A DNA stretch of 64,000 bases from Streptomyces sp. Tu6071 (GTDB taxonomy: Bacteria; Actinomycetota; Actinomycetes; Streptomycetales; Streptomycetaceae): NCBI RefSeq assembly GCF_000213055.1, contig NZ_CM001165.1:3990945-4054944 (forward strand), written 5' to 3'. Below are positions 5,089 to 54,013 of this stretch, piece by piece. The first letter of the stretch is position 1; every line of letters begins with the position of its first letter. Below the pieces are notes generated by a model. The model saw only the letters and a program-made list of their open reading frames with translations, had not been told where the DNA came from and made no database searches. The position numbers and the translations under genes were made by a program.

Positions 5089-5096
5089 CTCGCTGG

Positions 5097-5184
5097 CGGT
5101 AGCGGTGGGATTTGAACCCACGGTGACGGGTTACGCCACACTCGCTTTCGAGGCGAGCTCCTTCGGCCGCTCGGACACGCTACC
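5097..5184 (-). tRNA. tRNA-Ser (anticodon CGA)
   Basis: An 88-nt class II tRNA. The acceptor stem GGTAGCG pairs with CGCTACC, with discriminator G. The anticodon arm CTCGC-CTCGAAA-GCGAG gives anticodon CGA, reading UCG. There is a long variable arm and a canonical T-arm (GGGTTCAAATCCC). No CCA is encoded. It sits just downstream of tadA. Confidence 0.96.
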
Positions 5185-36225: not shown

Positions 36226-38169
36226 ATGCCTCATGTGACCCGAGAAACCGCACGGCGCCGAGCGCCCCGCCCCCTCGCCCGCTGGGCGGCCGGCGGGTTC
36301 GCCGGCCTGCTCGCGGGCTACGCGGCCCTCGCGGCCGGACAGCTCGTGGCCGGTCTCGGACGGGCCGAGGCGGGCCCGATCGCCGTCGTCGGGGGCGCGG
36401 CCGTCGACCTCGTGCCGACCCCGCTCAAGACGTGGGCGATCCGCGAGTTCGGCAGCAACGACAAGCGCGTGCTCGAACTCGGCATCCTCGCCGTCCTCGC
36501 CCTTCTCGCCCTCGCGCTCGGCGCGCTCGCCACCCGGTGGCGGCTGAGCGGTGCGACCGGGGTCCTCGCGATCGGCGTCGTCGGCGCCGTCGCGGCCCTG
36601 AGCCGCCCCGACAGCGCGGGCATCACGGACACGCTGCCCTCTCTGGTGGGAGCGGCAGCGGGTGCGGTCCTGCTGTACCTGCTGGTGGGACCGGTGTACG
36701 CCGGTGCGTACCTGCCGCCGTGGGTGTGGCCCGGATCGCTCGGGCGGTGGCGCATTCGGGGCGCCACCGCGCCCGACGGCCCCCGGGGGACCGAGGGGAA
36801 CCCTGGGGGCCGTTTGAACGAGGAGCCGGAGGAGGCGGAGGAGCCCGCGAGGCTCCGGGAGCCCGCGGGACGTGCGGGACGCGCCGAGAGGCGTGGACAG
36901 GCCGGGGAGCCCGCGCGGTTCGCGGGTGAAGGCGGTGCGGGGTCCGCCCGGCTCGTGGGTGAGCGCGGTGCGCGCCCCGCGGGGGACGGTGCCACCGAGC
37001 CCGCGGAGTTCGTGGGCGAGGGCGGTACGGGGCCCGGCGGCGAAGCCGGGGCAACGGCATCGGCCACCCCCTCCGTGCCGTGGGACCGCCGCCGTTTCGT
37101 CCTGGCCGCCGCCGCGACCGCCGTCGGGGCGACCGGGGCAGGGGCGGCCGGACGGGCGCTCGCGGGCGGGGACATCGCGAACGCGGTGGCCTCGCGGGAC
37201 GCGATCACGCTCCCGCGCCCGGCCTCGCCGGCCCGCGCCGTACCGGCCGGAGCGCGGCTCCACGTCCCCGGCCTCTCGCCCTTCACGACCCCGAACAAGG
37301 ACTTCTACCGCGTCGACACCGCCCTCGTGGTGCCGCACGTCGACGCGGGCTCGTGGCGGCTCCGCATCCACGGCGAGGGCGTGCGCGAGGACGTCGAGCT
37401 GAGCTTCGCCGCTCTCCTGCGGCGCGAGGCGGTCGAGCGCGACATCACCCTGACGTGCGTGTCGAACGAGGTCGGCGGCCCGTACGTGGGCAACGCGCGC
37501 TGGCTCGGCGTCCCGCTCGCGCCACTGCTCCGGGAGGCGGGCGTACGGCCCCCCTCGCGCGGCGGGAAGGCCGATCAGCTCGTGGCCCGCTCGGTCGACG
37601 GCATGACGCTCGGGACGCCCGTCGAGGACGTCATGGACGGGCGCGACGCGCTCCTCGCCTTCGGCATGAACGGCGAACCGCTCCCGTTCACGCACGGTTT
37701 CCCGGTGCGGATGGTCGTGCCGGGGCTGTACGGGTACGTGTCGGCGTGCAAGTGGATCGAGAGCATCGAGCTGACGACCTTCGACGCGTACGACCCGTAC
37801 TGGGTGAAGCGGGACTGGGCCCGCCAGGCACCGATCAAGACGTCCGCGCGCATCGACACCCCGAAGCCGCTCGCGCGCCCGGACTCGGGCACGGTGACGA
37901 TCGCCGGCGTCGCGTGGGCGCAGCACCGTGGCGTCGAGAAGGTCGAGGTCCGGGTCGACGACGGGCGCTGGCGCCCCGCGGACCTCGCGGCGCAGGACAC
38001 CCGTGACACGTGGCGGCAGTGGTCCATCCCCTGGCGGGCGACCCCCGGCACGCACACCCTGACCGTCCGCGCGACGGACGGCGAGGGCCACCGCCAGACG
38101 GCGAAGCGGGCCGGGACGGTGCCGGACGGGTCCAGCGGCTGGCACTCGGTGGTGGTCACCGTGGACTGA
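36226..38169 (+). CDS. Membrane-anchored molybdopterin-dependent oxidoreductase
   Basis: A 647-residue protein of the sulfite-oxidase fold fused to an N-terminal membrane domain. About five membrane segments occupy residues 20-165. A Gly/Glu/Ala-rich low-complexity stretch follows (about 185-283), then a twin-arginine-like segment RRRFVLAAAATA at about 288. The Mo-cofactor domain spans about 345-540, with the Mo-ligating Cys in LTCVSNEVGG (about residue 410). A C-terminal dimerisation domain includes GVAWAQHRGVEKVEVRVDDGRW. A GTG at 36235 is an alternative start. Substrate unknown. Confidence 0.92.
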   Translation: MPHVTRETARRRAPRPLARWAAGGFAGLLAGYAALAAGQLVAGLGRAEAGPIAVVGGAAVDLVPTPLKTWAIREFGSNDKRVLELGILAVLALLALALGALATRWRLSGATGVLAIGVVGAVAALSRPDSAGITDTLPSLVGAAAGAVLLYLLVGPVYAGAYLPPWVWPGSLGRWRIRGATAPDGPRGTEGNPGGRLNEEPEEAEEPARLREPAGRAGRAERRGQAGEPARFAGEGGAGSARLVGERGARPAGDGATEPAEFVGEGGTGPGGEAGATASATPSVPWDRRRFVLAAAATAVGATGAGAAGRALAGGDIANAVASRDAITLPRPASPARAVPAGARLHVPGLSPFTTPNKDFYRVDTALVVPHVDAGSWRLRIHGEGVREDVELSFAALLRREAVERDITLTCVSNEVGGPYVGNARWLGVPLAPLLREAGVRPPSRGGKADQLVARSVDGMTLGTPVEDVMDGRDALLAFGMNGEPLPFTHGFPVRMVVPGLYGYVSACKWIESIELTTFDAYDPYWVKRDWARQAPIKTSARIDTPKPLARPDSGTVTIAGVAWAQHRGVEKVEVRVDDGRWRPADLAAQDTRDTWRQWSIPWRATPGTHTLTVRATDGEGHRQTAKRAGTVPDGSSGWHSVVVTVD

Positions 38170-38333
38170 CGGCCGCCACGTACGGCGGCGGCAGCCGATG
38201 CCGTCGTACGTGGGCAAGTGACGCGTACATGCCAGACCTGGGGACCCGATCCCCGGTGACCCGCGCTTTCACGAACGCGCGATCCCTGTTCCCTCACTCA
38301 CTCCTTCACGCACCCCCTCACCTGGAGAACACC

Positions 38334-38999
38334 ATGAACACCGCCCTCCGTCGCACCGCCCTCGCGCTCGCCGTCGCCGTCCTCCCGGTGGCGCTCACCG
38401 CCTGCTCGGGCGACAGCGACAACAACGCCTCGGACAGCTCCTCGAAGGCGTCCTCGGCGTCCAAGGAAGCGTCGGACGAGGCGAGTTCGCCGGCGGCCGG
38501 GCAGGACCAGTCGATGGACGCCGCGGGTCCCTTCGGCGCGGGCTGTGCGGGCGTGCCGAAGAGCGGCGCCGGTTCGTTCGACGGCATGGCGCAGGACCCG
38601 GTGGCGACGGCCGCCTCGAACAACCCGGCGCTCTCGACGCTCGTCACGGCGGTCAAGAAGGCCGGACTCGTCGACACGCTCAACAACGCCAAGGACATCA
38701 CGGTGTTCGCGCCGACGAACGACGCCTTCGCGAAGATCCCGAAGGCCGACCTCGACAAGGTCCTCGCGGACAAGGCGCAGCTGACGAAGATCCTGACGTA
38801 CCACGTCGTCGGCAAGAAGCTGACGCCGAAGAACCTGGAGAAGGGCACCTTCGAGACGCTGGAGAAGAGCACCCTCATGACGTCCGGCTCGGGCACCTCG
38901 TACAAGGTCAACGACAGCGCGAAGGTCGTGTGCGGGAACGTCCGGACGGCGAACGCGAACGTCTACATCATCGACTCGGTGCTGATGCCGAAGATGTGA
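38334..38999 (+). CDS. Fasciclin-domain lipoprotein (MPT70/MPT83-like)
   Basis: A 221-residue lipoprotein with the lipobox LTAC, a Ser/Lys/Ala linker and one fasciclin domain (about 80-221). The domain contains GMAQDPVATAASNNPALSTL, ITVFAPTNDAF, LTYHVVGKKL and VYIIDSVLMP. The wording is very close to mycobacterial MPT70/MPT83, which are SigK-controlled. GGAG precedes the ATG by 7 nt. I could not find a complete SigK element upstream. It is followed by a perfect 12-bp terminator. Confidence 0.94.
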   Translation: MNTALRRTALALAVAVLPVALTACSGDSDNNASDSSSKASSASKEASDEASSPAAGQDQSMDAAGPFGAGCAGVPKSGAGSFDGMAQDPVATAASNNPALSTLVTAVKKAGLVDTLNNAKDITVFAPTNDAFAKIPKADLDKVLADKAQLTKILTYHVVGKKLTPKNLEKGTFETLEKSTLMTSGSGTSYKVNDSAKVVCGNVRTANANVYIIDSVLMPKM

Positions 39000-39047
39000 T
39001 CGCCGACGCGTCGGGGGCGGTCGCGCCCTCGGCGGGTGAGTGGTGAC

Positions 39048-39080
39048 GGGGCCCGGGAGCATGTCCAACTCCCGGGCCCC
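39048..39080. terminator. Hairpin terminator, usable in both directions
   Basis: GGGGCCCGGGAG (39048-39059) pairs perfectly over 12 bp with CTCCCGGGCCCC (39069-39080) around a 9-nt loop. No T-run follows on either strand. It closes the fasciclin gene from the left and could define the 3' end of the minus-strand tRNA-like transcript from the right. Confidence 0.75.
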
Positions 39081-39119
39081 TCGCGTGCCACCGTGTGGTC
39101 CCCCCGGCCCTTGGGAGGC

Positions 39120-39240
39120 CGCCGGATCAGTCTCTCCCCGCGCGCTCTGCCTTTGAGCTACCGAGCCAAGTGCCCTCTGTGACAGAGGGGTTCGGAGGCT
39201 CGGAGAGGAGTTGAACCTCCATCTCGCGGAAGTGTCCGGT
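39120..39240 (-). ncRNA. Circularly permuted tRNA-like RNA
   Basis: Read on the minus strand, the 3' half of a tRNA comes first: CCGCG (39229-39225), variable AGAT, T-stem GGAGG, loop TTCAACT, stem CCTCT, acceptor CCGAGCC (39203-39197), discriminator T. A 29-nt linker with a 7-bp hairpin (CCCTCTG/CAGAGGG) follows. Then the 5' half: acceptor GGCTCGG (39167-39161), T8-A9, D-arm GCTC-AAAGGCA-GAGC, G26, anticodon stem CGCGG (39142-39138). Acceptor pairs 7/7, anticodon stem 5/5, D-stem 4/4, T-stem 5/5 (one G-U). U8-A14, A15-U48, G18G19-U55C56 and U54-A58 are all possible. The 5' and 3' flanks pair as CCGGA/TCCGG. No normal anticodon loop with U33 exists. Expression and function are unknown. Confidence 0.75.
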
Positions 39241-39496
39241 GCCGGTCGGGCGGGGTGGGGCGGCCGATGCTGAGCTTGGAGCGAGAGTCTGAGCTTGAGG
39301 GCGCACCGCGTGCCGGGTGGGCCCGTTCAGTTTCACGGTCTGAGCTTCAGCGTGCGCGCACCGTGCGGTGCGCGCGCCCTCCGCGCTCGTCGGAGGGCGA
39401 TGGTGGGGTGGGCGCCGGGGTGGCGCTCCCGGTGGCCGCTCGGGTGGCTGCCGCAGCGGTGGCGGCTGATGGGCCCCCCGGGGCCCGTGCGCTGTT

Positions 39497-40231
39497 TCAG
39501 CCGCCGAAGAGGTAGCCGAGGAGGGCGGCGCCCGCGCGCCGGTCCTCGATCTCGGCGGCATTGGCCTCCTCGCGGGCGAACCGGACGGCCTGGAGCGGGC
39601 GTTCGGCGCGGTCGAGGAGTTCGTTGACGCGGCGGGCGGGGAGGGCGCCGGAGAACTTCACGGTGGTCCAGTAACCGACCGGGATGTCCTCGTAGTACAC
39701 CTCGACCTGCGCCGGGTGGTGCTCGGTCGCCTCGGCCTTGACGTGGTTGCGCGGGACCTTGCGGGTCCGCACGGTGCGTACCGGATCGGTGCGCCACGTG
39801 TCGGTGGACGGGTCCTGCGACCAGGTCTCTGCGGCGTCGAGCACGGGCAGCCTGCGCAAGAAGCCGTCGAGCGCGGTGAGTTGCTTCTCCAGGAAGAGCA
39901 GGTACGGGACCGGGGCGGCGGCGAGCAGCGTCCTGCCGTCCACGACGACGTCGGCGCGCGCGTCGAGATTCGCCCAGTCCTTCGTGGCGGTCACGTCGAA
40001 GAGCCTGGTCAGCGCCTCGGAGGCGGCCTTGAGGAGTTCCTCGGCCTTGACCTGGACACGGGTCGACTCGGGCGGCAGCTGCTCGCCCTCCTCGTCCTTC
40101 GGCTGGTAGCTGCGGGAGAGCCCGGCCAGGAGGGCGGGCTTCTGGAGTTCCTGGTGCGCGCGGGCAAGCTCCTGGGCGGACCTGGCCTTGACGCCCTTCT
40201 CCACTGCGATGATCTGATTGAGCTTGGGCAC
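39497..40231 (-). CDS. Conserved hypothetical protein (DUF7873-like)
   Basis: A 244-residue cytosolic protein, highly conserved across distant bacteria from MPKLNQIIAVEKGVKARS to the final LLGYLFGG. Blocks such as LFDVTATKDWANLDARADVVVDG, VPYLLFLEKQL, KVPRNHVKAEATEHHPAQVEVYYEDIPVGYWTTVKFSGALP stand out. I recall this as the DUF7873 family, not a certain name. Function unknown; wide conservation with sporadic distribution suggests an accessory core process. It is monocistronic. Confidence 0.87.
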   Translation of the reverse strand: MPKLNQIIAVEKGVKARSAQELARAHQELQKPALLAGLSRSYQPKDEEGEQLPPESTRVQVKAEELLKAASEALTRLFDVTATKDWANLDARADVVVDGRTLLAAAPVPYLLFLEKQLTALDGFLRRLPVLDAAETWSQDPSTDTWRTDPVRTVRTRKVPRNHVKAEATEHHPAQVEVYYEDIPVGYWTTVKFSGALPARRVNELLDRAERPLQAVRFAREEANAAEIEDRRAGAALLGYLFGG

Positions 40232-40912: not shown

Positions 40913-41830
40913 TTGAACCTCAAAACCCCCCACACCCCGAGCACCGCTCCCCACCACTCCCGCTCCGCCCGCGCCCGTCGGCTGCGGCGGCTGGCGCCGT
41001 TCGTCGTGGCGCTCGCGCTCGCGGTCCCGGGCGCCTCGTACGCCCTCGCCTCGCCCGCCCCCGCGCCCGCGCCCGCCGCGAGCGCCGGAGCGCGGGCGGA
41101 GCAGGCCCGTACGAAGGCGGCGACGGGCCTGGACGACCCGGCGAAGAAGGAGATCGCGATGCAGCTCGTCTCCAGCGCCGAGAACTCCTCGCTCGACTGG
41201 AAGGACCAGTACCGCTACATCGAGGACATCGGCGACGGACGCGGGTACACCGCCGGGATCATCGGCTTCTGCTCCGGCACCGGCGACATGCTCGACCTGG
41301 TCGAGCGGTACGCGAGGACGACGCCGGGCAACGTACTCGCCCCCTACCTCCCCGCCCTGCGCGAGGTGAACGGCACCGACTCGCACGACGGCCTCGGCTC
41401 CGCCTTCGAGGACGCCTGGCGCACGGCGGCCGGGGACCCGGCCTTCCAGCAGGCGCAGAACGACGAGCGCGACCGCGTGTACTTCGACCCGGCCGTGGCG
41501 CAGGGCAAGGAGGACGGGGTCGGCACGCTCGGCCAGTTCATCTACTACGACGCGATCGTGATGCACGGACCCGGGGACGACGGCACGAGCTTCGGCGGCA
41601 TCCGCGCCCGCGCCCTGCGCGAGGCGCGGCCGCCGGCCGAGGGCGGCGACGAGACGGCGTGGCTCAACGCCTTCCTCGACGCGCGGGTCTGGGCGATGAA
41701 GCAGGAGGAGGCGCACTCCGACACGAGCCGCGTCGACACGGCGCAGCGGGTGTTCCTGGACGCGGGGAACCTCGGGCTGGAGCCGCCGCTGGAGTGGAAG
41801 GTGTACGGGGACAGCTACCGGATCGGGTGA
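40913..41830 (+). CDS. Secreted chitosanase, GH46
   Basis: A 305-residue extracellular endo-chitosanase that hydrolyses chitosan. The signal region RRLRRLAPFVVALALAVPGASYALA ends near residue 46 and may be Tat-type. The catalytic acid Glu90 (SSAENSS) and base Asp108 (EDIGDGRGYTAG) have the 18-residue spacing of the family (E22/D40 in the N174 enzyme). The start is TTG: GGAGG lies 7 nt upstream, and no in-frame ATG or GTG fits. A five-codon ATG frame (MEEGR) begins 15 nt upstream and its stop overlaps the TTG. Likely repressed via the palindrome at 40831. Confidence 0.93.
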   Translation: MNLKTPHTPSTAPHHSRSARARRLRRLAPFVVALALAVPGASYALASPAPAPAPAASAGARAEQARTKAATGLDDPAKKEIAMQLVSSAENSSLDWKDQYRYIEDIGDGRGYTAGIIGFCSGTGDMLDLVERYARTTPGNVLAPYLPALREVNGTDSHDGLGSAFEDAWRTAAGDPAFQQAQNDERDRVYFDPAVAQGKEDGVGTLGQFIYYDAIVMHGPGDDGTSFGGIRARALREARPPAEGGDETAWLNAFLDARVWAMKQEEAHSDTSRVDTAQRVFLDAGNLGLEPPLEWKVYGDSYRIG

Positions 41831-53733: not shown

Positions 53734-54013
53734 GGGAGGTCCCCTTCGGAGGTCACGCGTGGACGGAGGCGGAAGCGGCGCGCTCCGGGGGACCTCGGGA
53801 GGGGGTGGCGTTGCTCCGCATACGGCGCTCCTCGGGCACGGCAATCCGACAACTGGGTGTCAGAAGCCATCAGCCCGGGAGGGCGGTTCGGGCCGTAAGG
53901 GGCCCCGGCGGGATTCATCGCCTGTGGCGAGCAGTCAACTCCTGCCGTGGGCGGCGGTCAAGCAGCGCGCCGCGCGGGAGCCGTGCTTCCGGGCACTCAT
54001 CGCGCCCGGGGGA

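What the first reader, a model, noticed from the sequence alone, without database searches (positions are those of the whole stretch)
39120..39240. Circularly permuted tRNA-like gene on the minus strand
The 3' half of a tRNA precedes its 5' half, joined through a 29-nt hairpin linker between the two acceptor strands. Acceptor (7/7), anticodon (5/5), D (4/4) and T (5/5) stems pair across the permutation. Tertiary-contact bases (U8, A14, A15-U48, G18, G19, U54, U55, C56, A58, G26-A44) are all in place. The discriminator is U followed by CCG rather than CCA. Both halves end exactly at the anticodon stem, and their flanks pair as CCGGA/TCCGG, so the structure looks selected. No ordinary 7-nt anticodon loop with U33 can be made without joining the ends. 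It may be a permuted tRNA, a tRNA-like decoy, or a small aminoacylatable RNA. I do not know of such a locus as an established Streptomyces feature.
Basis: seen in the sequence. Interest (0 to 1): 0.92.

Follow-up and report, generated by a model that had tools for sequence, protein, structure and literature searches.

The report
tRNA-mimic RNA paired with DUF7873
The back-to-front tRNA shape is real: it is one cap of a larger, apparently undescribed non-coding RNA that travels with one uncharacterised protein gene in about half of the Streptomyces genomes sampled and in many phages, which points to a new RNA-protein partnership that imitates tRNA.

Summary
Window 39138-39229 (-) folds as a tRNA with its 3' half before its 5' half (T 5/5, acceptor 7/7, D 4/4, anticodon stem 5/5). 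It is the only such site in the window, and 5.12 Mb of shuffled window gave none as good.

It is probably not a tRNA gene. It caps one arm of a ~350-nt RNA that begins ~100 nt past the stop codon of a DUF7873 gene (39497-40231, -). In 150 Streptomyces genomes the RNA (R1 >= 68 bits) occurs in all 70 with DUF7873 and none of the 80 without, same strand, 164-366 nt downstream. The pair recurs in most viral loci examined and in phages of Arthrobacter, Gordonia, Rhizobium, Klebsiella, Vibrio and Pseudanabaena, often with two permuted tRNA caps. Acceptor, T and D stems covary strongly.

Nearest kin is YrlA, the Ro60-bound bacterial Y RNA (29 bits; threshold 69), but no Ro60 was found in this genome, and Ro60 and DUF7873 occur independently (p = 0.25). 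No other Rfam family matched, and ten searches found no paper on it.

Best reading: a trans-acting tRNA-mimic RNA working with DUF7873 as YrlA works with Ro60. Linkage and structure are shown; binding, processing and function are inferred.

The parts
39497..40231 (-). DUF7873 (PF25283) gene, 244 aa, the presumed protein partner
   Evidence: Pfam E 1.3e-111; same 70 of 150 genomes as the RNA
39048..39398 (-). approximate extent of the non-coding RNA (ends not mapped)
   Evidence: consensus architecture of relatives and window coordinates
39376..39398 (-). 5' hairpin a
   Evidence: counterparts of other sequence in relatives, no covariation test
39354..39375 (-). 5' hairpin b
   Evidence: no covariation test
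39267..39353 (-). arm 1; base pairs 39347-39351 with 39269-39273; capped here by a plain hairpin where many relatives carry a second permuted tRNA
   Evidence: arm 1 pairs are nearly invariant, so covariation is silent
39269..39292 (-). sequence-conserved core TCAGACTCTCGCTCCAAGCTCAGC
   Evidence: consensus over Streptomyces, viral and phage loci; alignment A5
39087..39264 (-). arm 2; base helix 39259-39264 with 39087-39092
   Evidence: no broken cell in 18 sequences for these six pairs
39122..39239 (-). permuted tRNA-like cap with outer helix CCGGA 39235-39239 / TCCGG 39122-39126
39138..39229 (-). permuted tRNA-like domain, anticodon stem to anticodon stem
   Evidence: R1 69.8 bits in own genome
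39204..39220 (-). T arm
   Evidence: 99.7% of cells paired in A4
39197..39203 (-). acceptor 3' strand
   Evidence: acceptor 99.6% of cells paired
39168..39196 (-). linker between the acceptor strands, hairpin; 6-9 nt in most Streptomyces relatives
39161..39167 (-). acceptor 5' strand
39144..39158 (-). D arm
   Evidence: 99.3% of cells paired
39048..39080 (-). strong terminal hairpin, presumed terminator, between convergent genes; no T tract, so the terminator scan does not list it

Best explanation
Shown: the element is a tRNA-mimic cap of a ~350-nt non-coding RNA with two arms, inseparable from DUF7873 in 150 sampled Streptomyces genomes and paired with it in many phages. Inferred: RNA and DUF7873 form a ribonucleoprotein that acts in trans. 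DUF7873 holds the conserved core of arm 1; the caps offer a tRNA elbow and acceptor, without an anticodon, to an enzyme that reads them (PNPase-type nuclease, RNase P or a tRNA-end enzyme), as YrlA tethers PNPase to Ro60. In phages it would steer host RNA decay or tRNA handling; in Streptomyces the pair sits in ordinary chromosome. My odds: identity and pairing about 0.9; trans-acting ribonucleoprotein about 0.75; tether or scaffold as the specific role about 0.4. The confidence given is for the first two together.
For: R1 >= 68 bits in 70 of 70 genomes with DUF7873 and 0 of 80 without, same strand, 164-366 nt apart; G091 and Nonomuraea L140, not in the training set, are found. Detector: 69 of 69 Streptomyces loci downstream against 0 of 69 upstream and 0 of 69 reverse; 65 of 80 viral against 1 and 2; 5 of 5 phages; 7 of 9 more phages. 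Covariation. RNA upstream of DUF7873 with its own end hairpin in L291 and on the opposite strand in L288. YrlA permuted topology, and the YrlA-PNPase tether as told in PMC8394870 (passages).
Against: No expression, binding or phenotype data. DUF7873 shows no recognised RNA-binding fold. L251/L252 (identical stretch) and L285 show no such RNA in the DNA held. Arm 1 pairs hardly vary, so arm 1 rests on folding alone. Most copies lie directly 3' of DUF7873, which a cis element would also give. R1 was trained on 68 of the Streptomyces sequences it then finds.
Confidence: 0.72

Rival explanations
1. Decoy: the caps soak up a host or competitor enzyme that attacks or uses tRNA through its elbow or acceptor end, an anti-defence device in phages.
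For: 43 of 80 viral loci also hold ordinary tRNAs (no baseline measured); several named phage copies lie in tRNA clusters. PMC7790460 suggests a competitor role for YrlA (passages).
Against: No anticodon loop, so not bait for anticodon nucleases; does not explain the invariant arm 1 core or DUF7873; kept in 47% of sampled Streptomyces genomes.
Confidence: 0.25
2. Split tRNA mimic: RNase P and tRNA 3'-end enzymes cut the acceptor linker, leaving a CCA-ended domain that is charged or bound, as in two-piece permuted tmRNA.
Against: Streptomyces caps have CCA in only 4 of 14 and 2 of 31, and linkers of 6 nt; the window reads UCCG; no tag reading frame noticed (not systematically sought).
Confidence: 0.2
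3. Cis element in the 3' region of the DUF7873 messenger that controls its stability or expression.
For: In 70 of 70 genomes it lies just 3' on the same strand.
Against: L291 has it upstream and L288 on the opposite strand; PA-SR01 has it ~760 nt away behind an annotated small frame.
Confidence: 0.08
4. Divergent YrlA working with Ro60.
For: Same permuted order; YrlA 29 bits, E 0.00046.
Against: No TROVE hit in the genome; no association with TROVE in 150 genomes. Caveat: TROVE hits in the genus cover only ~62 of 442 profile positions, so a very divergent Ro60 could be missed.
Confidence: 0.04
5. Chance or relic of tandem tRNA genes.
For: Tandem tRNAs do mimic permuted models (L027, L028, L030).
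Against: No tRNA there by ARAGORN; no site this good in 5.12 Mb of shuffles; covariation; scores of 68 bits and over separate cleanly from the next listed hit at 51.7.
Confidence: 0.01

Closest known systems
YrlA, bacterial Y RNA (Rfam RF02553), partner of Ro60/Rsr and PNPase
   Same: Permuted tRNA-like domain capping a stem, acceptor strands joined by a loop
   Different: Scores 29 bits against a threshold of 69; tied to DUF7873 and not to Ro60; module of a ~350-nt RNA, often with two caps, where YrlA is 90-150 nt (PMC8394870, passages)
Circularly permuted tRNA genes of algae and archaea
   Same: 3' half before 5' half, joined between acceptor strands
   Different: Those are cut at a BHB motif and joined into tRNA (PMC3978253, passages); here the anticodon-stem strands continue into a conserved arm
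Two-piece permuted tmRNA
   Same: Permuted tRNA-like domain whose acceptor loop is removed
   Different: No match to tmRNA families at the window locus; this genome has an ordinary tmRNA hit elsewhere (176 bits)
GOLLD and ROOL large RNAs
   Same: Large structured RNAs of phages and bacteria (recalled; PMC12286853 seen in a listing only)
   Different: No hit to either in the loci scanned; the present RNA has a partner gene and tRNA caps

Membership tests
YrlA / bacterial Y RNA | Permuted tRNA-like domain on a stem | tested here: met
YrlA / bacterial Y RNA | Rfam RF02553 gathering score (69 bits) | tested here: not met
   29.0 bits
YrlA / bacterial Y RNA | Ro60/Rsr (TROVE) in the same genome | tested here: not met
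   no PF05731 hit in own genome; independent in 150 genomes; a very divergent TROVE could be missed
YrlA / bacterial Y RNA | Binding to Ro60 and PNPase | not testable with these tools
   needs biochemistry
Permuted tRNA gene | Full cloverleaf stems across the permutation | tested here: met
Permuted tRNA gene | Junction processed to give an anticodon loop | tested here: inconclusive
   strands continue into a covarying arm instead; BHB motif not searched for; no RNA data
Permuted tmRNA | Rfam tmRNA-type match at the locus | tested here: not met
   none at E <= 5 in window 38900-39700
Permuted tmRNA | Tag-peptide reading frame | not tested
   not systematically sought
GOLLD / ROOL | Rfam family match | tested here: not met
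   none in the window region, ten Streptomyces loci or six further loci

The most novel reading that the evidence does not exclude
A new class of ribonucleoprotein, shared by phages of several bacterial phyla and by Streptomyces, in which DUF7873 holds a two-armed RNA whose arms end in circularly permuted tRNA mimics; in many phage versions tRNA-maturation enzymes open the acceptor loops, so that one RNA presents two CCA ends: a natural two-headed tRNA mimic.
Probability: 0.35. Interest if true: 0.95.

Novelty: new variant of a known kind. Interest (0 to 1): 0.86.

Why it matters
Bacterial Y RNAs are described as partners of Ro60. Here a related permuted tRNA mimic is tied to an uncharacterised protein instead, in about half of sampled Streptomyces and in phages of distant hosts, with up to two mimics per RNA. 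It gives a first handle on DUF7873 and makes a question directly testable: why phages carry tRNA mimics without anticodons, often among their tRNA genes. It also suggests that permuted tRNA-like RNAs are commoner than the Rfam YrlA threshold shows: no Streptomyces hit passed it in 150 genomes.

Tried and rejected
Plain YrlA with Ro60: disfavoured. Rfam YrlA hits as a census: unusable, since tandem tRNA pairs match (L027, L028, L030) and 11 of 14 control genomes ring. R1 below ~52 bits has the same weakness; only >= 68 bits was counted. blastn for relatives: 4 of 150 genomes only. Conserved neighbour genes: among 80 named loci the largest stop-to-stop frame cluster spans 22 loci and starts inside the RNA region; I saw no convincing neighbour, but this is a weak test. 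DUF7873: no informative structure match; no PHROGs, NCBIfam or PADLOC family. Phylum sample: 7 of 396 genomes, all of the window's genus, although Kitasatospora, Actinacidiphila and Nonomuraea have the gene. tRNA isotype of the caps: undecided. Anticodon stem and outer helix on A4 give only 72% and 21% paired cells, partly because the alignment shifts register; per sequence the anticodon stem is 5/5 in 68 and 4/5 in 1 of 69, but the detector demanded at least 4; around the outer helix a Watson-Crick run of 5 or more occurs in 85% against 52% for mismatched pairs. Promoter scan: none. Literature: ten searches showed no paper on this RNA or on DUF7873; two YrlA papers are not held.

Rows dropped: L132 (G091) failed the protein-motif step, so 69 loci, not 70, entered the detector and 68 distinct sequences entered A4; A5 took 18 of the 21 loci without a second T-loop motif (L126, L130, L131 left out).

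Full report
What is there. On the minus strand the window holds a tRNA-like fold in permuted order at 39138-39229: anticodon-stem 3' strand, variable loop, T arm, acceptor 3' strand, 29-nt linker hairpin, acceptor 5' strand, D arm, anticodon-stem 5' strand. Every stem pairs fully. A detector demanding this order finds one site in the window, this one; 40 shuffles of the window (5.12 Mb, both strands) give 13 sites and none with the full score. ARAGORN does not report it.

First lead. A permissive Rfam scan gives YrlA, the bacterial Y RNA, full length at 29.0 bits, E 0.00046, far below its 69-bit threshold. YrlA partners Ro60 (TROVE), and its tRNA-like domain binds PNPase (PMC8394870, passages). 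But this genome, rated 100% complete, has no TROVE match. TROVE hits elsewhere in the genus cover only ~62 of 442 profile positions, so a very divergent Ro60 could escape.

The neighbour that matters. The gene just upstream, 39497-40231 (-), is DUF7873. All four genomes that blastn finds with the RNA (4 of 150) have DUF7873 directly upstream on the same strand. Of 150 Streptomyces genomes, 70 carry DUF7873. I read what follows it in 69 of them (one locus failed a motif step). A permuted tRNA-like domain follows in 69 of 69, against 0 of 69 upstream and 0 of 69 on the reverse strand; 29 show two domains, and by a looser T-loop motif 48 of 69 have a second one (counted by hand).

Association test. 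A covariance model, R1, from 68 distinct domains scores 68.3-110.7 bits once in each of 70 genomes; the next listed hit in the 150 genomes has 51.7 bits. The stronger of those lesser hits lie near TROVE genes; others coincide hits that I take for tandem tRNAs, of which I checked three. The 70 genomes are the same 70 that carry DUF7873; every hit is on the same strand, 164-366 nt downstream. The positives are partly circular, since R1 was trained on them; the 80 negatives, G091 (not in training, 87.9 bits) and Nonomuraea L140 (81.6 bits) are not. TROVE is independent of DUF7873: 41 both, 29 DUF7873 only, 39 TROVE only, 41 neither, Fisher p 0.25.

Selection on structure. In A4 the T, acceptor and D stems form standard pairs in 99.7, 99.6 and 99.3% of cells; 13 of 16 consensus pairs have changes on both sides; over all six helices given, the covariation score is 0.318 against 0.137 in shuffles and at most 0.119 when slid. 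The cut-outs were made by a detector that demands pairing, but none of the 69 loci failed it.

The whole RNA. RNAalifold on groups of 29, 20 and 2 loci and on A5, 18 loci with the window among them, gives 5' hairpins, arm 1 with a conserved core (roughly TCAGAYTMTYGCTCYAG), arm 2 with long-range helices ending in the permuted tRNA, and a terminal hairpin. In A5, 23 of 58 pairs have both-sided changes, arm 2's outer helix included; arm 1 pairs hardly vary, so covariation is silent there. In the window arm 1 ends in a plain hairpin. The anticodon-stem strands continue into arm 2, so no anticodon loop is waiting to be made.

Phages. DUF7873 relatives occur in 71 or, with a Rhizobium phage query, 73 of 50,697 phage records, from hosts as far apart as Gordonia, Rhizobium, Klebsiella, Vibrio and Pseudanabaena, and in 276 viral contigs. 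Detector, ordinary tRNAs masked: 65 of 80 viral loci downstream, 1 upstream, 2 reverse; 5 of 5 phages; 7 of 9 further phages, 0 upstream, 0 reverse. Of the two misses, PA-SR01 has the domain ~760 nt on, just outside the 750-nt scan, and the Microcoleus phage has only an imperfect 43-bit hit ~2 kb on. With R1 at E <= 1e-3, counted by hand and without tRNA masking: 70 of 80 viral loci downstream on the same strand; L291 upstream; L288 on the opposite strand; L297 and L300 by the detector only; L281 by eye; L275 doubtful; L269 ends too soon; L251/L252 (identical stretch) and L285 none. L288 and L291 argue that the RNA works in trans. ARAGORN tRNAs lie in 43 of 80 viral loci; I measured no baseline, and a few may be misread mimics.

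CCA. Among distinct viral domains classed by the core motif (30 of 80 viral loci without it left out), CCA follows position 73 in 19 of 35 for cap 1 and 11 of 30 for cap 2; in Streptomyces in 4 of 14 and 2 of 31. For ordinary tRNAs in the same viral loci a looser test gave 44 of 213. Joined acceptor strands cannot receive CCA from an enzyme unless cut, so encoding it hints at tRNA-like maturation in phages. This is inference, and the tight Streptomyces loops speak against it there.

Mechanism. I commit to a trans-acting ribonucleoprotein in which DUF7873 grips the arm 1 core and the caps recruit an enzyme that reads a tRNA elbow or acceptor. Shown: structure, covariation, linkage, independence from Ro60, phage spread, two unlinked arrangements. 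Inferred: binding, recruitment, benefit. Lacking an anticodon, the caps cannot decode or bait anticodon nucleases, which leaves elbow and acceptor readers.

Novelty. Only YrlA comes near in Rfam, and two defining YrlA features tested (threshold, Ro60) are not met. I call it a new variant of the Y RNA kind; a class of its own is not excluded. Papers seen as passages only: PMC8394870, PMC12282133, PMC7790460, PMC7824862, PMC3978253; as a listing only: PMC12286853. PMC7824862 mentions TROVE proteins in jumbo phages and PMC12282133 proposes Rsr and Y RNAs in a Listeria phage; the passages shown do not describe this pair.

Noticed in passing
L006-L021, L023-L026, L029, L031, L032, L034 (Streptomyces genomes): A second, Ro60-type family: YrlA-like RNAs of ~100 nt, many about 1 kb 5' of a TROVE hit; TROVE in 80 of 150 genomes, yet no YrlA hit passes the Rfam threshold.
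   Followed up: partly
L027, L028, L030: Tandem tRNA genes imitate permuted tRNA models (3' half of one plus 5' half of the next), a trap for any census of permuted tRNAs.
   Followed up: partly
L310 3518-3597 (Klebsiella phage vB_KpM_FBKp24): An annotated suppressor tRNA (tRNA-Sup-TTA) overlaps the 5' part of the second permuted cap and is probably a misreading of it.
   Followed up: partly
L267 4838-5086: Two further R1 hits (31.1 and 41.3 bits) beyond the first pair, perhaps a second copy of the RNA; not checked against tandem tRNAs.
   Followed up: no
window 53854-53931 (-): Fluoride riboswitch, 35.6 bits against a threshold of 34.
   Followed up: no
window 5094-5184 (-): tRNA-Ser(CGA), the only ordinary tRNA in the window.
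   Followed up: no
window 36226-38999 (+) and 40913-41830 (+): Neighbouring genes: molybdopterin oxidoreductase, fasciclin-domain protein, family 46 glycosyl hydrolase; none looks phage-derived.
   Followed up: no
L130 2259-2439: A cobalamin riboswitch lies downstream of the DUF7873 RNA in one genome, 86.4 bits.
   Followed up: no
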